Positions 12,389 through 26,395 of a stretch of 64,000 nt of DNA are shown here, one piece after another. The stretch is from Celeribacter persicus. GTDB taxonomy: Bacteria > Pseudomonadota > Alphaproteobacteria > Rhodobacterales > Rhodobacteraceae. Within the stretch, counting starts at the first letter, position 1, and each line of letters starts with the position of its first letter. The translations under genes were made by a program, and so were the position numbers. The stretch spans positions 124,001 to 188,000 of the forward strand of contig NZ_QAOH01000005.1 in the NCBI RefSeq assembly GCF_003050785.1. Reading direction: 5' to 3'. The notes under the pieces were generated by a model that saw only the letters and a list, made by a program, of their open reading frames with translations, was not told where the DNA came from and searched no databases.

Positions 12389-13858
12389 ATGACACAGGCC
12401 ATTTCACATCAGCCCGGCGTCTCAAAAGCCGCCGAGACCCGCGTCACCCGCCTCTTCTTCCTTGCGATCACCGCCTATTACGTTTTGCAGATCGTTCAAC
12501 GTCTGGCAATGGGTGGCGGTCTTGAGGCAGATGACGGTGAGATGCTCATGATGACGCCCGGAATGCAGTGGGGCTATGGCCCACAGCTTCCGTTCTACAA
12601 CTGGCTTCAGGTCGGTGTCTTCGCGATTCTCGGCAAGACGCTGTTCGGCATCACCTTTCTCAAACACTTCATGCTCTGGGCCACATTTGCCCTGCTCTTT
12701 GTCGGGCTGCGGGCCTGGTTGCCCGCAAAGCAGGCTGCCATCGCCAGCCTGTCGCTGTTCCTCATCCCGGACATCGCATGGGAAGCGGAGCGGATCACCA
12801 CCCATTCGAACGCCATGCTCGCAGCCATTTCCGGCACGTTCGCAGGCTTTCTCTGGGTGATGCGCACCGGACGCTGGCGCGACTGGATCTGGCTCGGACT
12901 GGCGGTCGGGATCGGTGGGATTTCCAAATACAACTACTGGGTGGTACCTGCCGCTTTGGTGCTGGTCGCCCTGACCATGCCCGAACCGCGAAAGGCTTTG
13001 CGCAGCCCTCGTGCCCTGATCGTGCCGGTCATGGCCGCCGCATTCTGTATCGGCCCCTATCTCTGGATGCAGGCTAACGCACGGCTTGCCATGGCCTCAG
13101 CGCATAAGTTCGAGTTGGATGAATCTCCGACGGCACTTCTTCCCGAAGGCGTCATCGAGTATCTCGGCGGTCTCGTCGCACTGCTGATGTTGCCCTTGAT
13201 CGTTGCAGGTGTCATGCATCTGCTCTCGCGCAAAGCCTCACGAAACCAGAACACAGCCCCCTGGCTCCCCGGGCTGATGCTGCGCATGGCGCTGTTGAGC
13301 ATGGTCGTCGGATTAGCGGTGGTGTGGTTCTCCGGCGCAGGCAAGGTGACCACGCGCTGGTTGCTTCCCATCGTCATTCCGCTTGTCCTTGCGATCTATC
13401 TCACGCTTGCACAGCGTATCAGCCGCAAGGCGACCATCGCCTTCACCCTCTCCCTGGCCCTGCTCGCCGTTGGCGTGTTCGCCGGGCTGGCCCATGACCG
13501 CTACAAGGACGGTGCCCGGCGCGATTTCGACTTCGAAGGTCTGGCGCAGCATATCGAGGCTTTGAAACTCCCTCCCGACACGGTGATTGTCAGCGGGTTT
13601 TACCTCGGTGGCAATCTGGCCTTGCTGCGCCCGGATTGGGATATCGCCTCGACCCTGCCCACCTCCATGCAGGACAGGGACGCCCCGCATGTGCTCTTCG
13701 TGAGCCGCTATGACGAAGACCTCGTCGCGCGGGCTGTATCTGTCGGCTGGAACGGGATCGAAACGGCCGTATTCGAACCGCGGGAACATATCGAACTGCC
13801 CGCACATCACAGCGATGCAACACTGTCGGTTTACTACCGATACGCACATAAGCAATGA
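12389..13858 (+). CDS. GT39-type polytopic glycosyltransferase (copy 1)
   Basis: This 489-residue integral membrane protein belongs to the GT-C superfamily (dolichyl-/polyprenyl-phosphate sugar transferases, ArnT/PMT-like). These move a sugar from a lipid carrier to lipid A, glycan or protein on the periplasmic face. The first periplasmic loop carries the acidic motif EADDGEM near residue 50, where family catalytic acids lie. About ten hydrophobic segments follow, and the conserved GPQLPFYNWLQ and GGISKYNYW motifs are shared with the next gene. The acceptor and sugar cannot be read. It ends 10 bases before copy 2, so the two form an operon. Confidence 0.82.
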   Translation: MTQAISHQPGVSKAAETRVTRLFFLAITAYYVLQIVQRLAMGGGLEADDGEMLMMTPGMQWGYGPQLPFYNWLQVGVFAILGKTLFGITFLKHFMLWATFALLFVGLRAWLPAKQAAIASLSLFLIPDIAWEAERITTHSNAMLAAISGTFAGFLWVMRTGRWRDWIWLGLAVGIGGISKYNYWVVPAALVLVALTMPEPRKALRSPRALIVPVMAAAFCIGPYLWMQANARLAMASAHKFELDESPTALLPEGVIEYLGGLVALLMLPLIVAGVMHLLSRKASRNQNTAPWLPGLMLRMALLSMVVGLAVVWFSGAGKVTTRWLLPIVIPLVLAIYLTLAQRISRKATIAFTLSLALLAVGVFAGLAHDRYKDGARRDFDFEGLAQHIEALKLPPDTVIVSGFYLGGNLALLRPDWDIASTLPTSMQDRDAPHVLFVSRYDEDLVARAVSVGWNGIETAVFEPREHIELPAHHSDATLSVYYRYAHKQ

Positions 13859-13868
13859 AGATAGCCAG

Positions 13869-15362
13869 ATGGCCATGACCTCCGCCCCTCGCTTTACTTC
13901 GATGTCAGAGCCCACACAGGACCGTATTTTTCTCGGCCTCGTGCTCGGGTATTTCATGGTCCAGACGATTTTGCGCACCGCCCTTGGCGGATCGTTCGAG
14001 ATGGACGAGGCCGAAATGATCGCGATGGCGCGCGACTTCCGGCTTGGTTACGGACCGCAATTGCCACTGTTCAACTGGCTTCAGGCGGCGGGGTTCAAAC
14101 TTTTTGGCGTCAACACCTTCGCGCTGACCGCAACCAAGAACGGATTGCTCTGTCTGACCTATGCGGGTGCCTATGTTGGGCTACGGCAGAAACTCCCCGT
14201 GCGTCTGTCGATTCTGGGCACGCTGGGGCTTTTGCTTTTGCCCAACCTGTCGTGGGAAGGACAACGCGCTGGCTCTCACACCATTGCGATGCTGGCGGCA
14301 ATGTCGTGGTGCTTCTGGGTTTTGATACGACAATGGCGCTCGCCGCGGTTCTGGCACTGGATCGTCTTTGGCTTTCTTCTCGCGGCAGGCGGATTGTCGA
14401 AATACAATTTCTGGCTCTTCCCGCTGACGCTGTTTCTGGCCGCCTTCTGGCATCCGGAGCTGCGTGCCGCGTTGTGGCGCCGCGAAGCGCTGATCAGCCT
14501 TGTTCTCGCGGGTCTGCTGCTCATCCTGCCTTATGGCTGGATCGTCACGCATATGGATCAGGCTCTCTCCTCCACCCGGAAATTCTACTATTACTCCAAC
14601 GAGTCCACTCTGTCCCCGCGTCAGCAAGGTCTCACGGAGTTCGTCACCCAGAGCCTTCTGGCGCTGCTCCTGACCCTCCTCACGCTGTTCTTCGCCTGGC
14701 TACCCGCACGCAAGACGCTGAGCAGCACTGGAGACGATCTGGGCATCGGGCCGTGGCTCATCCGCGCCGGTCTTCTGGGCTTGTTGCTCTCGCTCGGCGG
14801 AATCGTCATCTCCGGCACCAGCGACGTTCAGGCGCGCTGGCTGCTTCCCGCCCTCATTCCCCTCTCAGTGGGGCTTATGGTTCGGGGAGGCACCGCACTC
14901 TCCACCCGCGCCAGCCGCAATATCATGCGGTTTTGCGCGGTTCTCGCTCTGCTTCTGATTGCCGCTATGGCCGACATCCGGCTGCGCGGGGCGGGATCGG
15001 ATTCCATGCGGGTCGACCTTCTGGCCGATGAAATCGAGAGCCACTGTGCCCCGGGCTCATCCATCGCTTTCGACTCCATGGGTTATTACTTCCTCGGCAA
15101 TCTGAAATATCATCGCCCCGACTGGCTCGCCCTGCCCGCGCAACCGGAGCGCAGCGTGCCCGAGAGCGTCTCCTGTCTCGTTGTTGTGAACACGGATGAA
15201 CCCGCCCGTGCCGAGGCTGTATTGCAGACATACAACGTGGCCTCCCGCGTGATCGGCATACCTCAGCATTTCACCGCAACCCTGCCCTATCGCTTCGAGC
15301 CGCCAGAGGTCACGAAAACCGTGCCCTACTTCATTATCCAACTAAAAAACGGCGCCCAATAG
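13869..15362 (+). CDS. GT39-type polytopic glycosyltransferase (copy 2)
   Basis: This 497-residue protein is a diverged paralog of the preceding gene. The same landmarks recur in the same order: FEMDEAEM in the first loop, GYGPQLPLFNWLQ, and GGLSKYNFW, followed by a set of membrane helices and a soluble C-terminal segment with a HRPDW motif matching RPDW in copy 1. The ATG at 13869 follows the upstream stop closely, and a second ATG at 13875 is also possible. Tandem copies may act on different positions or form a heteromer. The stop codon lies inside the terminator hairpin. Confidence 0.82.
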   Translation: MAMTSAPRFTSMSEPTQDRIFLGLVLGYFMVQTILRTALGGSFEMDEAEMIAMARDFRLGYGPQLPLFNWLQAAGFKLFGVNTFALTATKNGLLCLTYAGAYVGLRQKLPVRLSILGTLGLLLLPNLSWEGQRAGSHTIAMLAAMSWCFWVLIRQWRSPRFWHWIVFGFLLAAGGLSKYNFWLFPLTLFLAAFWHPELRAALWRREALISLVLAGLLLILPYGWIVTHMDQALSSTRKFYYYSNESTLSPRQQGLTEFVTQSLLALLLTLLTLFFAWLPARKTLSSTGDDLGIGPWLIRAGLLGLLLSLGGIVISGTSDVQARWLLPALIPLSVGLMVRGGTALSTRASRNIMRFCAVLALLLIAAMADIRLRGAGSDSMRVDLLADEIESHCAPGSSIAFDSMGYYFLGNLKYHRPDWLALPAQPERSVPESVSCLVVVNTDEPARAEAVLQTYNVASRVIGIPQHFTATLPYRFEPPEVTKTVPYFIIQLKNGAQ

Positions 15363-15371
15363 GCGCCGTTT
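15347..15371. terminator. Bidirectional terminator overlapping the copy 2 stop codon
   Basis: AAACGGCGCC at 15347-15356 pairs perfectly with GGCGCCGTTT at 15362-15371 around a 5-base loop. A/T runs on both sides serve both the glycosyltransferase operon and the convergent pheT. The TAG stop (15360-15362) lies in the loop and the base of the right arm. Confidence 0.82.
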
Positions 15372-15395
15372 CTCAACTTACCATCGTCTTTGGCC

Positions 15396-17789
15396 TTAGC
15401 CGCGCAACGTACCGCCCGTGGCTTTCTCCACCTTGGCGATAATTTTTGCGGAGAGTTCCTCAAGGTCTTTCTCCTTGAGTGTCCCCTCGGTCGGCTGAAT
15501 ACGCACGGTGATGGCCAGAGATTTCTTGTCCTCGCCAAGCGAACCGCCGATGAACTCGTCGAAGATGCGCACATCCTCGATCAGCGCCTTATCGGCCCCG
15601 CCTGCGGCATTCACCACGTCAAGCGCCCGCACGTCCTTGTCGACGACAAAGGCAAAGTCGCGCTCAACGGCCTGAAGGTCGTTGGTAAAGAACGCAGAGC
15701 GCGCAATCTTGTTGCCGCGCGGCATGGGCGCCTCTTCGAGATAGACGGTAAAGGCCACGGCCGTACCTTTCACGCCCATCGCCTTGAGCACTTTCGGGTG
15801 CAGCTCGCCGAACTCGGCCAGAACCTTTTTCGGCCCGAGGCAAATCTTGCCCGACCGGCCCGGATGGAACCAAGGCGAACACTCGCGCAGGATTTGCGCC
15901 TTGGCCGGCGCACCGATGGCGGCCAGAACGGCCTCCGCATCGGCCTTCGCGTCATAGAGATCGACCACACGGCGCTCGCCATGCACGTCTTTCGCCCCTG
16001 TTGCACCCACGCGCAGACCGGAGATTTGCGCACGCTGCTCGCCCGGCTCGCCACCGAAGAACGCAGGGCCGCATTCGAATAGGTTCAAATCGGCAAAACC
16101 GCGAGCTTGGTTGCGCGTTGCCGCCGCCAGAAGACCGGGCAAAAGGTCCGGGCGCATGTGGCTCATCTCGGAACTGATCGGGTTTTCCAGACGCACCGCA
16201 TCCGTGCCGCCACCGAACAGCTCGGCGGATTTCTGGTCGATGAAGCTGTAGGTCACGCATTCGTTGAAGCCAAGCGCCGCCGCCTGATGCCGGGCCGCGC
16301 TTTCGCGCACCTGCATGGGTGTCAGGATTTGCTTGGCCACACCCGCCGGACGGCTCATCGGTTTCGGTTCCAGATGGGTCAGGCTCTCAACGCGCGCGAC
16401 CTCCTCGACCAGATCGGCCTCGCCCAAAACGTCCGGACGCCAGCTCGGCACGTTTGCCATCTCGCCGTCCATCACGAAGCCAAGGCTTTCCAGAATGGCC
16501 ACCTGACGCTCCGCCGGAATGTCCATGCCGACAAGGCTCTGCACCCGATCGGTATCGAGGCGATAAGCGCGGGACACATCCGGCACTGCACCAGCAACGA
16601 CCACCTCGGAGGCCTCGCCACCGCAAAGCTCCAAAATCATCGCCGTCGCATCGTCCAGCGCCTGCATGTTGTAGGCCGGATCGATGCCGCGTTCGTTGCG
16701 GTAACGCGCATCCGAGTTGATCTTGAGCGCACGGCCGCCTTTGGCGATGTCGAGATGGTTCCAGAACGCCGCCTCAACGAACACATCCGTGGTCTCGTCC
16801 GAACAACCGGTTTCCTCGCCGCCCATGATGCCGCCGATGCTCTCGACCTTGCCACCGGAGAAGATGCACATCGCGCCTTCGGGCATTTTGTAGGTCTTCT
16901 CGTCAAGCGCCAGTAACTCCTCGCCGCCTTTCGCGCGGTCGATCACCAGACCGTCTTTCACCGTCGCCGCATCGAACACGTGCAGCGGACGGTTGCGATC
17001 ATAGGTGAAGAAGTTGGTGACATCGACCAGAATGGAAATCGGACGCAGACCGATGGCGGTCAGGCGATCCTGCAACCATTTCGGCGAGGGACCGTTTTTC
17101 ACGCCCTTGATCAGACGCCCGGCAAAGACGTGACAGCCGTCCTTCGCGGCCTCTGTGATCTCGACCGAAATCGGGTTCGGGAATTTGCCCTCGACCGTTT
17201 CCGCCTTGAGCGGTTTCAACGTTCCAAGCCCACGGGCCGCCAGATCACGCGCCACGCCATGCACGCCCAACGCATCGGGGCGGTTCGGCGTAATCGCGAT
17301 CTCGATCACCGGGTCGACCTTCGCGGGCTGATGTTTCGCCAGCCAATCGGCAAACTCCATGCCGATCTCGCCGTCTTCCAGCTCGATGATGCCGTTGTGC
17401 TCGTCCGACAGCTCCAGCTCGCGCTCAGACGCCATCATGCCATGGCTCTCAACGCCGCGGATTTTGCCGACGGAAATGGTGATATCGAGGCCGGGTATAT
17501 ACATGCCGGGTTTCGCCAAGACGGCGGTGATCCCCGCCCGCGCGTTGGGCGCGCCACAGACAATCTGGGTCATGCCCTCATCCGTCTCGACCTGACAGAC
17601 CCGCAACTTGTCGGCGTCGGGGTGCTGCACGGCCTCTTTGACACGCACGAGTTTAAACCCCTTAAGCTTGTTGCGCGGGTTCTCGACGCCTTCGACCTCA
17701 AGCCCGAGATCGGTCAGCGCGTAAAGGATGTCATCGAGGCTGGCCTCGGTTTCCAGATGCTCTTTGAGCCAGGAGAGTGTGAATTTCAT
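15396..17789 (-). CDS. pheT: Phenylalanine--tRNA ligase beta subunit
   Basis: PheT forms the alpha2-beta2 synthetase that charges tRNA-Phe. The 797-residue length is normal. In order it shows the N-terminal [12 protein letters not shown], a tRNA-binding OB fold (VCQVETDEGMTQIVCGAPNA), the B3/B4 editing domain, the B5 domain, and a C-terminal anticodon-binding FDX-ACB domain (RDFAFVVDKDVRALDVVNAA). Its ATG overlaps the stop of an unknown gene by 4 bases, where pheS would normally be the direct neighbour. It probably depends on that gene for translational coupling. Confidence 0.97.
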   Translation of the reverse strand: MKFTLSWLKEHLETEASLDDILYALTDLGLEVEGVENPRNKLKGFKLVRVKEAVQHPDADKLRVCQVETDEGMTQIVCGAPNARAGITAVLAKPGMYIPGLDITISVGKIRGVESHGMMASERELELSDEHNGIIELEDGEIGMEFADWLAKHQPAKVDPVIEIAITPNRPDALGVHGVARDLAARGLGTLKPLKAETVEGKFPNPISVEITEAAKDGCHVFAGRLIKGVKNGPSPKWLQDRLTAIGLRPISILVDVTNFFTYDRNRPLHVFDAATVKDGLVIDRAKGGEELLALDEKTYKMPEGAMCIFSGGKVESIGGIMGGEETGCSDETTDVFVEAAFWNHLDIAKGGRALKINSDARYRNERGIDPAYNMQALDDATAMILELCGGEASEVVVAGAVPDVSRAYRLDTDRVQSLVGMDIPAERQVAILESLGFVMDGEMANVPSWRPDVLGEADLVEEVARVESLTHLEPKPMSRPAGVAKQILTPMQVRESAARHQAAALGFNECVTYSFIDQKSAELFGGGTDAVRLENPISSEMSHMRPDLLPGLLAAATRNQARGFADLNLFECGPAFFGGEPGEQRAQISGLRVGATGAKDVHGERRVVDLYDAKADAEAVLAAIGAPAKAQILRECSPWFHPGRSGKICLGPKKVLAEFGELHPKVLKAMGVKGTAVAFTVYLEEAPMPRGNKIARSAFFTNDLQAVERDFAFVVDKDVRALDVVNAAGGADKALIEDVRIFDEFIGGSLGEDKKSLAITVRIQPTEGTLKEKDLEELSAKIIAKVEKATGGTLRG

Positions 17790-18292
17790 TGGTTTGGCTC
17801 CTTTTTCGGTCTAGGGCCGTAAAGCAACATGCTCATTTCGTCTTCGGAAAGCAGATCATCAGGATGGGCATCTGAGCGAGCAAGCGTCATGGCCGAGACT
17901 TCTGTCTCTTTGCACTCAATAGACAGCCCACTGAACGTTACCTCATCTATTCCATCGCAAATTTTATCGTTCAAATTACGCACGGCAAAAAGTAGCTTCC
18001 GACAAGCAAGCACTACATCCTTGGGAGCATAAAGTACGATTGCGTTGAAGGTCAGGCGTGCAGCACGTTCAGCTTCTTTAAAATCATCAGTCCCCGCAGT
18101 ACGGTATAGCTGGATGTAGGCTGTGAAAAATTCACTGTATGCCTTTCTTTTATCCGCACGAATTTGAAGTTTGTGATCTTCACTCTTCTGCTTGGGGTAT
18201 GCTTTATAAGCGATCCACAAAGCGGTACCTGCCGCCACTAAAGCGGCAGAGAACGTCAAAAAGCCCTGTATGATACGAGGATCACAGATCAC
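17786..18292 (-). CDS. Unknown single-pass membrane protein inserted between pheS and pheT
   Basis: I do not recognise this 168-residue protein. One hydrophobic helix near the N-terminus ([20 protein letters not shown]) is followed by a charged, mostly helical soluble region, with an acidic end ([21 protein letters not shown]). It starts with GTG inside the pheS stop (GTGA) and ends inside the pheT start (ATGA), so both junctions are 4-base overlaps. Base composition is foreign: the 60-base lines at 17941 and 18121 count 40% and 35% G+C, against 62% in a sampled pheT line. This suggests recent acquisition with seamless fit into the operon. Confidence 0.75.
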
Positions 18293-19359
18293 CCGTGAAT
18301 CCCCCCCGCCAGCGTCGGCGTGCCAAGCGCACTAAACCCATAGTGACGCAACCAGCGCAGGTCAGAGTCAAAGAACGCCCGCAGATCCGGGATACCGTAT
18401 TTCAGCATCGCCAGACGGTCGATCCCCATGCCAAAGGCAAAGCCTTGCCACTCTTTCGGGTCGATGCCGCCGGCGGTCAGGACTTTGGGGTGCATCATGC
18501 CGGAGCCGAGGATTTCGAGCCAGTCGTCGCCCTCGCCCACGGTCACGGTGCCGTTTTCCCATTTGCACTGCACATCCACCTCGGCGGAGGGTTCCGTGAA
18601 GGGGAAGTGGGAGGCGCGGAAGCGGGTTTTGACCTTGGTGCCGAAAAACGCGGTGTAGAACTCTTCGAGCACCCATTTCAGGTTCGCCATGGAGATGTCC
18701 TTGTCGATGGCCATGCCTTCGACTTGGTGGAACATCGGCGTGTGGGTCTGGTCGTAGTCGGAGCGGTACACACGGCCCGGCGCGATGATGCGGATCGGCG
18801 CGCCTTGGGCAATCATCGAGCGGATTTGCACCGGCGAGGTGTGGGTGCGCAGCACGTTCGGCGCGCGTTCGTCGCCCTCGGCGCGGTGCATGTAGAACGT
18901 ATCGTGTTCCTGGCGCGCGGGGTGGTTCGGCGCGATGTTGAGCGCGTCGAAGTTGTGGAAATCGTCTTCGATCTGCGGACCTTCGGCCACGGCAAACCCG
19001 AGATCGGCGAAGATCGCGTAGATCTCTTCGGACACACGGGAGATCGGATGGATCGTTCCCTGCGGACGCTGACGCCCCGGCAGGGTCACGTCGAGCCATT
19101 CTTCGGCCAGACGCGCGTCCAGAGCGGCGTCTTCCAGCGCGACCTTCTTGGCGGCCAGAGCGGAGTTGATCTCATCCTTGAGAGCGTTGAGCTTCGGCCC
19201 CATGACCTGACGCTCTTCCGGGCTCATCTTGCCCAGTTCGCGCATCTTGAGCGCCACTTCGCCCTTTTTGCCGACCGCTTGCAGACGGATGTCTTCCAGC
19301 GTCGCCTCATCCCCCGCCTGCAAAATCGCGGTGAGGTATTTGTTCTTCAGATCGTCCAT
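18289..19359 (-). CDS. pheS: Phenylalanine--tRNA ligase alpha subunit
   Basis: PheS is the catalytic subunit of phenylalanyl-tRNA synthetase. The 356-residue sequence has an N-terminal coiled-coil arm (residues 1-90), then class II motifs: [19 protein letters not shown], the motif 2 region [21 protein letters not shown], and the C-terminal [17 protein letters not shown] of motif 3. The gene reads leftward into an unexpected inserted gene, then pheT. It lies downstream of rplT with a terminator between them. Confidence 0.97.
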
Positions 19360-23144: not shown

Positions 23145-23474
23145 ATGCCGGAGATTGACGACAAGACCATGGTGGAGATCGAAGCCGCAGCTTTTCGCAC
23201 ACTGCGCGATCACCTGATGAACAAACGCCCCGATGTGCAGAACATCGACATGATGAACCTCGCTGGCTTTTGCCGTAATTGCCTGTCGCGCTGGGTGCAG
23301 GAAGCCGCCGCCGAACGTGGTATCGAAATGACCAAGGACGAGGCGCGCGAGCTTTATTACGGCATGCCCTACGACGACTGGAAAGCACAGAATCAGACGG
23401 AGGCGGATGCCGCGAAACAGGAGGCTTTTGCCAAAGCCTTTGCCGAGAATGTCGGCACGGAGGGGCAAAAATGA
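23145..23474 (+). CDS. DUF1244 domain protein
   Basis: This 109-residue protein matches the DUF1244 family of small alphaproteobacterial/gammaproteobacterial proteins of unknown function. The core is RTLRDHLMNKRPDVQNIDMM followed by NLAGFCRNCLSRWVQEAA, with a conserved Cys-x-x-Cys, and ends in a charged helix. It starts 3 bases after the isomerase gene and overlaps the next gene by 4 bases (ATGA), so it is within the operon. Confidence 0.85.
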   Translation: MPEIDDKTMVEIEAAAFRTLRDHLMNKRPDVQNIDMMNLAGFCRNCLSRWVQEAAAERGIEMTKDEARELYYGMPYDDWKAQNQTEADAAKQEAFAKAFAENVGTEGQK

Positions 23475-24106
23475 AACCCGCCGACCAGCTTGCACAATTC
23501 GTCCGCGAAGCGCTCGTGGCAGGCCGCAGCCGCGACGAAATCGCAGTCGCCCTGACCGAGGCGGGCTGGGCCAGGACCGAGGTCGAAGATGCGCTGGCGA
23601 CATGGGCCGACATGGGATTTACACCCCCTGTGCCGCGCCCGCGCCCCTATGTCTCGGCAAAGGAGGCGTTCTTTTACGCGCTGATGTTCGTCGCTCTCGG
23701 GATGACGGCGTGGCACATCGTCGATCTGGGGTTTGACCTGATCGAGCACTGGATGTCCGACACCGACGTCGTTTATTTCCGCAACAGTAATAATTCGATG
23801 CGCTGGTCGATCTCAGCGCTCATCGTGTTCTTCCCGCTTTTCATGCTGATGCAGCGCACTGAGGCCCGCGGACTCGCGCGTGACCCGAGCCGTAAACGCT
23901 CCGCCGTGCGCAAATGGTTCGGGTATATCACGCTGTTCTTCTCTGCCCTCACGCTTCTGGGCGATCTTTTGAGCGCGATCTATGCACTTCTGAGCGGCGA
24001 TCTGACGCTGGAATTCATCCTCAAGCTGCTGCTTGTGGGGGGCGTGGCCGGTATGGTGTTCGGCTATTTTCAGGGTGCGATGAGGGATGCCGAAGATGGA
24101 CGCTAA
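23471..24106 (+). CDS. DUF5671 membrane protein
   Basis: This 211-residue protein has a soluble N-terminal helical region (about 1-50: DQLAQFVREALVAGRSRDEIAVAL in two helices) resembling a UBA-like fold, then a PVPRPRPYVSAKEAF linker and four membrane helices typical of DUF5671. The function is unknown. The start at 23471 overlaps the DUF1244 stop. The next gene starts 11 bases before its end. Confidence 0.78.
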   Translation: MKPADQLAQFVREALVAGRSRDEIAVALTEAGWARTEVEDALATWADMGFTPPVPRPRPYVSAKEAFFYALMFVALGMTAWHIVDLGFDLIEHWMSDTDVVYFRNSNNSMRWSISALIVFFPLFMLMQRTEARGLARDPSRKRSAVRKWFGYITLFFSALTLLGDLLSAIYALLSGDLTLEFILKLLLVGGVAGMVFGYFQGAMRDAEDGR

Positions 24107-24488
24107 GCTCTGGCCGCAACTGTCGTTAACCATGCTTGTCATAAGCATCGTGATCGCAGGCCTCATAACCGTCGGTGGACCCGAAGCCGGACGGGTCGAA
24201 AAACGCGATGATCAGCGATACCGGGAATTGCAGGATGTGCGGCGACAGTTGGACTGTCTCGCTCGCGCCGGGGGCGAAAGCCTGCCTGCCGAGATCATCG
24301 AGACGGAAACCTGTTCCTCCGCCCTGTCCGAGGGTGCATTGCTGCTCTCGGAGGGCTATCGCTACCTGCCGCAAGACGACGGCAACTATCTGCTATGCGC
24401 CACATTCGAGGATATCGACAAGCTGCGACAGCGGTATCTGCGAGGGGAAATTGACAGCGGCGGCTGCATAAACGGCACGATCAACTGA
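24096..24488 (+). CDS. Small membrane-anchored protein of unknown function
   Basis: This 130-residue protein has one N-terminal membrane anchor (LTMLVISIVIAGLITVGG) and a charged periplasmic or cytoplasmic domain with four cysteines (CLARAG, ETCSSA, LLCATF, GGCING), which could form disulfides if exported. The ATG at 24096 overlaps the end of the DUF5671 gene by 11 bases, so the two are coupled. I do not recognise the family. A terminator follows directly. Confidence 0.7.
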   Translation: MDAKLWPQLSLTMLVISIVIAGLITVGGPEAGRVEKRDDQRYRELQDVRRQLDCLARAGGESLPAEIIETETCSSALSEGALLLSEGYRYLPQDDGNYLLCATFEDIDKLRQRYLRGEIDSGGCINGTIN

Positions 24489-24495
24489 CCCCAAC

Positions 24496-24526
24496 AAAAA
24501 AGCCCGCCATTTTGGCGAGCTTTTTC
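24496..24526. terminator. Bidirectional terminator ending the 22-24.5 kb operon
   Basis: AAAAAGCCCGCCA pairs with TGGCGAGCTTTTT through one mismatch and a TTT loop. A-runs on the left and T-runs on the right make it functional for both the rightward operon and the leftward aminotransferase unit. Confidence 0.85.
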
Positions 24527-24545
24527 ATGGATGATCGGGTTCTGC

Positions 24546-25406
24546 TCAAAGCGCAGTTTTCGGCATCTCTGCGATGTAAATCTCACGCAGACGTCTGGAG
24601 ACAGGCCCCGGCTTGCCCGTCCCAACGGTCACGCCATCAATTTCCACAATCGGCTGGCTGAACCCGGTGGCCGAGGTCGCGAAGGCCTCATCGGCAGCCT
24701 GGGCCTCTTCGATGGTGAAGGGACGCTCTTCGACTTTCATCTGCGCTTCTTTGGCGAATTTGAGAATCGCGGCGCGGGTGATGCCGTGCAGGATGTCATT
24801 CGACAACTGGCGCGTGATGATCACACCATCTTTAACGATATACACGTTGTTGGCGTAGCCTTCTGTCACAAACCCATCCTCAACGAACCAGGCATCTGTC
24901 GCCCCGGCTTTCTTCGCCTGCATTTTGGCAAAAGACGGGTACAGGAGCTGCGTGGTTTTAATATCGCGACGGCCCCAGCGCAAATCCTCCACGGAGATCA
25001 CCTTGATCCCCTCATCAAGCGATTTGCTCTCGGTGATTTTCTTGGCAAAGGTAAACAATACGATGCCACCCTTGACCTCTTCGGGGTCCGGCCAGACGAA
25101 ATCCCGATCCGCACCCGCACCACGGGTGACCTGAAGGTAGATCCCACCTTCTTCAAGATTGTTTTTTTCGATGAGCTGATGATGGATCTCCAAAAGCTCG
25201 TCCATCGTGACGGGCGAAATCATCTGCAACTCATTGAGAGAACGTTGCAGGCGCGCAGTGTGCCCCTGGAAATCAAGCAGTTTACCGCCCAGAACAGAGG
25301 TCACCTCGTAAACTGCATCCGCCATCAGGAACCCACGGTCGAAAATAGATACTTTGGCCTCGGTTTCCGGCAGGTATTCGCCGTTCACATAGACGGTACG
25401 GGTCAT
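24546..25406 (-). CDS. D-amino-acid aminotransferase (class IV PLP enzyme)
   Basis: This 286-residue class IV aminotransferase moves amino groups between D-amino acids and 2-oxo acids using PLP. It starts RTVYVNGEYLPETEAKVSIFDRGF, and the PLP lysine lies in DIKTTQLLYPSFAK. The cofactor-phosphate region GFVTEGYANNVYIV and the end ATSATGFSQPIVEIDG are typical of D-alanine aminotransferases. The ATG at 25406 follows AAGGAGAATG. It is the last gene of a unit with dgcA and dgcN, so it probably feeds or drains D-glutamate. Confidence 0.9.
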   Translation of the reverse strand: MTRTVYVNGEYLPETEAKVSIFDRGFLMADAVYEVTSVLGGKLLDFQGHTARLQRSLNELQMISPVTMDELLEIHHQLIEKNNLEEGGIYLQVTRGAGADRDFVWPDPEEVKGGIVLFTFAKKITESKSLDEGIKVISVEDLRWGRRDIKTTQLLYPSFAKMQAKKAGATDAWFVEDGFVTEGYANNVYIVKDGVIITRQLSNDILHGITRAAILKFAKEAQMKVEERPFTIEEAQAADEAFATSATGFSQPIVEIDGVTVGTGKPGPVSRRLREIYIAEMPKTAL

Positions 25407-25426
25407 TTCATTCTCCTTAAATGACA

Positions 25427-26395
25427 TCAGCCCCAGAGGGCGCGCGCCGGCGGGTGGACCCCGTCCGCGTCGTATTTCAAAGGCTCGGCACGGTCTTCCG
25501 CCAAAAGCAGGGGGCCGTCAAGGTCCACGACACGGGCACCTTGTGCCACGATCACTGCCGGGGCCATCGCCAGAGAGGTCCCGACCATGCAGCCGACCAT
25601 GATGCCATAGCCCTCGGCGCGGGCCGCCTTGCGCAGTTCCAAAGCCTCGGTGAGCCCACCGGTCTTGTCGAGCTTGATGTTGATGACATCGTATTTGCCC
25701 TTGAGATCCGGCAGGCTCGCCCGGTCGTGACAGGATTCGTCGGCGCAGACCGGAAGGGGCCTTTCAATCTCCGCCAACATGTCATCCTGCCCGGCAGGCA
25801 TGGGTTGTTCCACAAGCTTCACGCCAAGCCGCACCAGATGCGGCGCGAGATCGGCATAGACCTCCGCACTCCAACCCTCGTTGGCATCGACGATGATATC
25901 CGACTTCGGCGCACCCCGGCGCACGGCTTCGAGCCGCGCCATATCGTCCGGCGTACCGAGTTTGATTTTCAACAAAGGCCGGTGCGCGTGTTTTGCGGCA
26001 GAGGCCTGCATCTCTTCGGGAGTGGCGAGCGACAGCGTATAGGCGGTGATCATCGGGATCGGCGCGGGCAGGTCCAGCAATTGCCAGACCCGCTTGCTCG
26101 CCTGCTTCGCCGCCAAATCCCAAAGCGCACAGTCGACCGCGTTGCGCGCCGCACCGGGTTCCAAAGCCTCTTGCAGCGTCGCGCGCGTGATGTCTTCGGG
26201 AAGGGCCTCGATCTGTGCCGTCACACTCTCAAGGCTTTCGCCATAGCGCGCATAGGGCACGCATTCGCCCCAGCCTTCGAAATCACCATCCGTGGCGCGC
26301 ACCGTGACTACCCTGGCCTCCGTGCGTGAACCGCGGGAAATAGTGAAGACTTCCGCGAGACGAAAGCTTTCCTGTGTGACGGTCAGTCTGGTCAT
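25427..26395 (-). CDS. dgcA: Enolase-superfamily N-acyl amino acid racemase / dipeptide epimerase, DgcA-like
   Basis: This 322-residue enolase-superfamily enzyme belongs to the muconate-cycloisomerase/dipeptide-epimerase branch. Visible catalytic residues are the KIK base motif (LLKIKLG), metal ligands in DANEGW, EQPMP and CADES, and the second lysine in NIKLDKTGG. Older annotation would call it L-Ala-D/L-Glu epimerase. Next to a DgcN-like gene it is better read as the N-acetyl-D-glutamate racemase DgcA, as I recall from recent work on D-glutamate use. The name rests on context. The enzyme class is firm. Confidence 0.85.
   Translation of the reverse strand: MTRLTVTQESFRLAEVFTISRGSRTEARVVTVRATDGDFEGWGECVPYARYGESLESVTAQIEALPEDITRATLQEALEPGAARNAVDCALWDLAAKQASKRVWQLLDLPAPIPMITAYTLSLATPEEMQASAAKHAHRPLLKIKLGTPDDMARLEAVRRGAPKSDIIVDANEGWSAEVYADLAPHLVRLGVKLVEQPMPAGQDDMLAEIERPLPVCADESCHDRASLPDLKGKYDVINIKLDKTGGLTEALELRKAARAEGYGIMVGCMVGTSLAMAPAVIVAQGARVVDLDGPLLLAEDRAEPLKYDADGVHPPARALWG

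What the first reader, a model, noticed from the sequence alone, without database searches (positions are those of the whole stretch)
17786..18292. Low-G+C membrane protein gene inserted between pheS and pheT with 4-base overlaps on both sides
pheS and pheT normally adjoin. Here a 168-residue single-helix protein of no known family sits between them, using GTGA and ATGA junctions so that neither phe gene loses coupling. Counted 60-base lines inside it give 40% and 35% G+C, against 62% in pheT. Foreign composition plus a perfect operon fit suggests a recently acquired gene held in by co-translation with an essential synthetase. It could be an addiction- or immunity-like element, or a factor that tunes PheRS.
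Basis: partly seen in the sequence, partly recalled or inferred. Interest (0 to 1): 0.7.

Follow-up and report, generated by a model that had tools for sequence, protein, structure and literature searches.

The report
Swappable gene slot between pheS and pheT
In this marine bacterium and its relatives the space between the two genes of an essential enzyme holds a single gene, tightly joined to its neighbours, that differs even between closest relatives; it looks like a place where small, possibly virus-fighting, genes are swapped in and out.

Summary
In detail: a 168-codon, 46.7% G+C ORF (17786..18292, minus) overlaps pheS by GTGA and pheT by ATGA. It is one occupant of a hypervariable one-gene slot. 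Among 117 junctions of its family with pheT in reach, only 5 gaps are 60 bp or less; in alphaproteobacteria outside the family 41 of 51 are. Of 102 family junctions with gaps of 190 bp or more, 58 carry an ORF of at least 60 aa starting exactly at the pheS stop (8.1 expected from shuffles). Occupants are mostly unrelated and differ in all three resolved sister pairs of a 20-genome genus tree. Two families favour the site: DUF2513 (Pfam model; 23 of 30 loci beside pheS/pheT) and the window's one-helix family (10 of 16 genomes not used to build its profile). In the window's subclade, synonymous sites of pheT next to the slot are homogenised, as exchange by homologous recombination would leave; deeper sets do not show this. 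Function is untested; I favour defence against phages or mobile elements, since the same junction elsewhere carries a TIR defence candidate, MazE/Fic, HEPN and nuclease-like genes. 'Recently acquired' is supported; addiction and PheRS tuning are not.

The parts
17786..18292 (-). slot gene: 168-aa protein with one N-terminal hydrophobic helix and a predicted helical cytosolic part
18289..19359 (-). pheS, upstream gene of the coupled pair
   Evidence: ORF; PheS relatives
15396..17789 (-). pheT, downstream gene of the coupled pair
   Evidence: ORF; used as pheT query
18289..18292 (-). GTGA overlap: pheS stop and slot-gene start
   Evidence: sequence
17786..17789 (-). ATGA overlap: slot-gene stop and pheT start
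   Evidence: sequence
18301..18307 (-). G-run inside pheS, 8 nt before the slot-gene start; candidate ribosome-binding site (by sight)
17798..17803 (-). AAGGAG inside the slot gene, 8 nt before the pheT start; candidate ribosome-binding site of pheT (by sight)
18197..18262 (-). hydrophobic segment, about residues 11-32, candidate membrane helix
   Evidence: hydropathy; helix 5-64 in the model

Best explanation
The ORF is the present occupant of a hypervariable one-gene slot between pheS and pheT, common in its family (Rhodobacteraceae). The slot gene takes its start codon from the pheS stop (NTGA or TAATG), so it is probably translated by coupling to pheS, and carries a ribosome-binding site for pheT at its own end, so PheRS expression survives each swap. 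Alleles are replaced between species, most likely by homologous recombination in the flanking pheS and pheT sequence. SHOWN: the geometry, the hypervariability, mostly unrelated alleles, the site preference of two families, homogenised synonymous sites at the flanks in the window's subclade. INFERRED: translational coupling, recombination as the vehicle, and the selected function, which I take to be defence: the window protein would be a membrane-anchored single-gene defence or superinfection-exclusion factor made steadily along with PheRS.
For: Gaps and first-ORF offsets of 133 junctions; 58 of 102 coupled against 8.1 expected; outgroup junctions; genus tree; control junctions: 13 of 17 in the neighbourhood never deviate by more than 150 bp from the median, pheS-pheT does in 13 of 19 genomes; DUF2513 at the site in 23 of 30 loci, 17 of 19 placeable ones starting at -4 or -1; window family 10 of 16 profile-independent genomes; fourfold-site identity 0.92 in pheT codons 1-40, 0.61 at codons 201-240. 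Defence-like genes at the junction elsewhere: PDC-S35/TIR coupled at -4, MazE and Fic, HEPN, DUF559/REase-like.
Against: No slot gene was tested. The window protein has no PADLOC hit at E 0.01, its family only weak ones (best 5.9e-5, over the membrane helix), and DUF2513 only a weak one (LmuC, 0.003). The clear defence-type genes lie in other genera or outside the family; HEPN and MazE/Fic are not the coupled first gene. Homogenised flanks are absent in a second genus set and across genera, and slot-less controls show part of the pheS bump. Two other intervals near by also vary. Some alphaproteobacteria outside the family also have inserts (10 of 51).
Confidence: 0.55

Rival explanations
1. 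Permissive landing site: insertions are tolerated here because pheT keeps its own ribosome-binding site; short orphan genes arrive, give no benefit and decay.
For: 37 of 48 first-ORF clusters are singletons, some probably not genes; some occupants look broken: two frames of the window's family in one genome (L103/L184), a shortened one in L127.
Against: Two families concentrate at this site; exact start-on-stop geometry far above shuffles; most neighbouring junctions of the same genomes are free of inserts.
Confidence: 0.25
2. PheRS accessory: slot proteins modulate PheRS or translation.
For: Position inside the operon; the resident ASCH gene beside pheT in part of the family belongs to a domain family linked to RNA (recalled).
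Against: Occupants are unrelated, often membrane proteins (29 of 56 coupled first ORFs have a hydrophobic segment), and three genus genomes have no gene there.
Confidence: 0.08
3. Addiction or selfish element held in by coupling to an essential gene.
For: Coupling to an essential gene; one insert carries MazE and Fic genes (L101).
Against: Mostly one gene without a partner; sister genomes have replaced or lack it.
Confidence: 0.07
4. Spurious ORF in a degenerate spacer.
For: No curated family.
Against: Relatives in other genera with shared motif positions, exact overlaps on both sides, shuffles.
Confidence: 0.02

Closest known systems
[quoted passage not shown] 2017, PMC5635113; abstract and one section read)
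   Same: Variable content between conserved genes, rapid turnover, no integrase noticed in the small inserts, a recombination signal at the flanks
   Different: One gene inside a two-subunit enzyme operon with start-on-stop coupling; flanks here are homogenised between species in one subclade, whereas that paper reports higher nucleotide diversity in flanking genes
P. aeruginosa core defence hotspot cDHS1 near pheS/pheT/rplT (PMC10250203; search listing and one passage seen)
   Same: Immune genes near the same translation genes
   Different: There pheS, pheT and rplT are neighbours of a defence region that also holds ihfA and a tRNA-Pro; nothing I saw places genes between pheS and pheT
DUF2513 (PF10711, phrog_585)
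   Same: The commonest recognised alternative occupant of the slot (11 of 66 first ORFs), also in phages (32 records)
   Different: Not similar in sequence to the window protein; no paper found under that name
PADLOC one-helix 'Effector' models
   Same: Weak hits of three family members over the helix
   Different: Not matched by the window protein at E 0.01

Membership tests
Core-gene-flanked transfer hotspot | Variable gene content between the same conserved genes | tested here: met
   117 junctions; 20-genome genus
Core-gene-flanked transfer hotspot | Recombination signal in flanking core genes | tested here: inconclusive
   Synonymous homogenisation in 11 genomes; absent in an 8-genome set and across genera
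Known anti-phage system | Match to a described defence model | tested here: not met
   Window protein: no PADLOC family at E 0.01; family members only weak
Known anti-phage system | Protection against phage | not testable with these tools
   Needs a phage challenge
TrbK entry exclusion (TIGR04361) | Score over the curated cut-off of 50 bits | tested here: not met
   14.5 bits, E 0.033
Toxin-antitoxin addiction module | A toxin gene with its antitoxin gene | tested here: not met
   Single ORF between pheS and pheT in the window

The most novel reading that the evidence does not exclude
Rhodobacteraceae keep a dedicated single-gene immune slot inside the PheRS operon: one swappable, translationally coupled defence gene per genome, with the window's one-helix family and DUF2513 as two undescribed defence families, passed between species through the flanking synthetase genes.
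Probability: 0.3. Interest if true: 0.85.

Novelty: new variant of a known kind. Interest (0 to 1): 0.65.

Why it matters
A site inside the operon of a two-subunit essential enzyme that takes mostly one gene at a time with exact start and stop overlaps, and where unrelated families gather, would give a ready list of candidate defence genes (read the slot in many genomes, clone, challenge with phage). It is also a natural case of genes being exchanged without breaking translational coupling.

Tried and rejected
Search by the window protein alone suggested near absence (2 of 61 genomes; 7 of 394); looking at the junction itself showed otherwise. Phages and plasmids by tblastn with the window protein: no match. 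Viral contig scans with three slot proteins: no relative. Solved structures by profile: nothing convincing. Model with mean pLDDT 75.6 from a three-row alignment: no fold match below E 0.001, so no function is drawn from the fold. The variable rplT-pheS gaps include a shared 1.9-kb insert in two sister genomes, unlike the slot.

Rows dropped or chosen. L002 was dropped as the same genome as L054. Six first ORFs (L078, L012, L021, L136, L099, L060) and those at start offsets outside my list were left out of the 66-protein scan. The 29 proteins of the second scan were picked by hand from 87 listed ORFs plus L230. The 133 junctions are 30 family loci, 18 more genus genomes, 80 fetched from about 115 further listed rows (rows near contig ends and others skipped) and L003-L007, first found through the window protein; they lean towards PheS close to the window's and slightly towards occupied slots; 16 of 133 had no pheT in reach. 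The 28 outgroup loci are the best-scoring of 108 outgroup genomes with a PheS match.

Full report
The gene. The ORF at 17786..18292 (minus) has 168 codons, starts with GTG inside the pheS stop (GTGA) and ends on the pheT start (ATGA). G+C is 46.7% against 62.1% in pheS and 61.6% in pheT. No Pfam or NCBIfam match comes near the curated cut-offs and PHROGs has none. It has one hydrophobic stretch. The model (three-row alignment, mean pLDDT 75.6, below 70 over the first 40 residues) has a long helix 5-64 and three more helices to residue 142; fold searches give nothing below E 0.001.

The junction in relatives. The nearest named PheS relatives are Celeribacter (97-99%). The window protein alone hits 7 of 394 family genomes, itself included, but five of the six others lie at the same pheS-pheT junction. 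The junction is hypervariable: of 133 examined, 117 have pheT in reach, with gaps <=60 bp in 5, 61-200 in 10, 201-600 in 42, 601-1500 in 53 and more in 7. Outside the family, alphaproteobacteria have gaps <=60 bp in 25 of 28 sampled genomes (20 exactly the ATGA overlap) and in 16 of 23 named records; the other 10 of 51 carry spacers or genes at the same spot; 14 of 14 gammaproteobacteria have 13-26 bp. The bare ATGA overlap is presumably ancestral.

Slot geometry. First ORFs of at least 60 aa cluster at two offsets from the pheS stop: -4 in 47 and -1 in 12 of the 92 listed. Of 102 junctions with gaps of 190 bp or more, 58 have such an ORF at one of these offsets; shuffles give 8.1. In 22 of 56 the coupled ORF also ends at the pheT start, and 29 of 56 have a hydrophobic segment. 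Coupled inserts are on average 8.7 points lower in G+C than the pheS flank, the others 1.8. In the genus 16 of 20 genomes have a coupled first ORF, one has an ORF with another start and three have no ORF of 50 aa. Some genomes keep an ASCH and a YrhK gene between the slot gene and pheT; neither family is found in the window's genome.

Turnover. On a tree from five conserved proteins of 20 genus genomes (PheS and PheT among them), slot labels change at least 14 times (possible range 10-15 for these labels), and 8 times if only the two large families and 'other' are told apart (possible 2-9). All three resolved sister pairs differ, as do the members of one unresolved trio. Labels are mine; L048, a distant member of the window's family, was labelled apart; no label shuffle was run. 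Over the family the 92 first ORFs form 48 clusters, 37 of them singletons, some probably not genes. Control: of 17 junctions around pheS in 19 genus mates, 13 never deviate by more than 150 bp from their median; pheS-pheT does in 13 of 19 genomes, and three others do in 3 of 18, 4 of 11 and 11 of 18.

Families that gather at the site. DUF2513, sought with Pfam's own model, occurs in 31 of 394 genomes; of 30 loci fetched 23 lie beside pheS or pheT, and of 19 whose ORF could be placed 17 start at -4 or -1. The window's family, as a 19-sequence profile, matches 32 of 394 genomes; of 30 loci fetched 24 are beside pheS or pheT. Since the profile was built from slot genes, the fair figure is for genomes not in it: 10 of 16 with a locus (two more had none). 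Six are elsewhere. In a class sample of 190 genomes, which includes a few of the family, the profile matches two genomes outside the family, neither with pheS or pheT within the fetched stretch.

How alleles may move. Among 11 Celeribacter genomes fourfold-degenerate sites are 92% identical in pheT codons 1-40, falling to 61% at codons 201-240, rising again to 75-78% at 241-320, then 52-66%. In pheS they are 81-87% at codons 201-320 and 64% in the last 36. Neighbouring genes give 36-72%, rplT 68-81%, leaving out one window of a few codons. This fits exchange through the flanks. Against a general claim: a second set of 8 genomes and a cross-genus set show no pheT peak, and slot-less controls have a smaller pheS bump. 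Gene transfer agents would be a plausible vehicle (recalled, not tested).

What the occupants do. Of 66 first ORFs Pfam recognises DUF2513 in 11, ASCH in 6, YrhK in 2 and four or so singles weakly; PADLOC gives only weak hits, for the window's family best 5.9e-5 to a one-helix 'Effector' model. At the same junction elsewhere: a TIR protein matching PDC-S35 (1.4e-78) and CAP12/Pycsar TIR in an alphaproteobacterial MAG, coupled at -4; MazE and Fic genes behind a DUF2513 gene in L101; a HEPN protein, second in its insert, in L293; a DUF559 protein in L231; weak PycTM-like second genes in four family genomes. An MCP-signal protein in L225 shows that not all inserts look like defence. In Staphylococcus phage 3A a DUF2513 gene lies near regulator and anti-repressor genes. 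My own weights: slot real about 0.9, homologous recombination as vehicle about 0.6, defence as function about 0.45.

Literature. Nine full-text searches found no description of this slot; the library lacks most subscription papers. Nearest in print: core-gene-flanked hotspots (PMC5635113, abstract and one section) and a P. aeruginosa defence hotspot near pheS/pheT (PMC10250203, listing and one passage).

Noticed in passing
window 23475-24545: The interval between ORFs 23145-23474 and 24546-25427 also varies in length in the genus: 11 of 18 genomes deviate by more than 150 bp from the median.
   Followed up: no
window 13859-15395: The interval between ORF 12389-13858 and pheT varies too (4 of 11 genomes).
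   Followed up: no
L101:2048-4404 (pheS-pheT insert of 2433 bp): DUF2513 gene first, then further ORFs including a MazE-type antitoxin and a Fic/Doc gene.
   Followed up: partly
L153 and L154, between rplT and pheS: A shared insert of about 1.9 kb in two sister genomes; other genus genomes have 118-252 bp there except L149 with 1331 bp.
   Followed up: partly
L171:1447-2028: A member of the window's family away from pheST whose stop overlaps the start of the next gene (2025) by ATGA, the same kind of junction.
   Followed up: no
L176 and L183: Members of the window's family next to ribosomal-protein genes and downstream of a LepA-like gene (genes named by sight).
   Followed up: no
L045, L046, L192 pheS-pheT gaps: Similar G+C-rich stretches whose translations share a HARPA/GG..AHPG-like pattern, perhaps a short repeat element (by sight).
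   Followed up: no
window genome G000: The ASCH and YrhK genes that several relatives keep before pheT are not found anywhere in the window's genome.
   Followed up: yes
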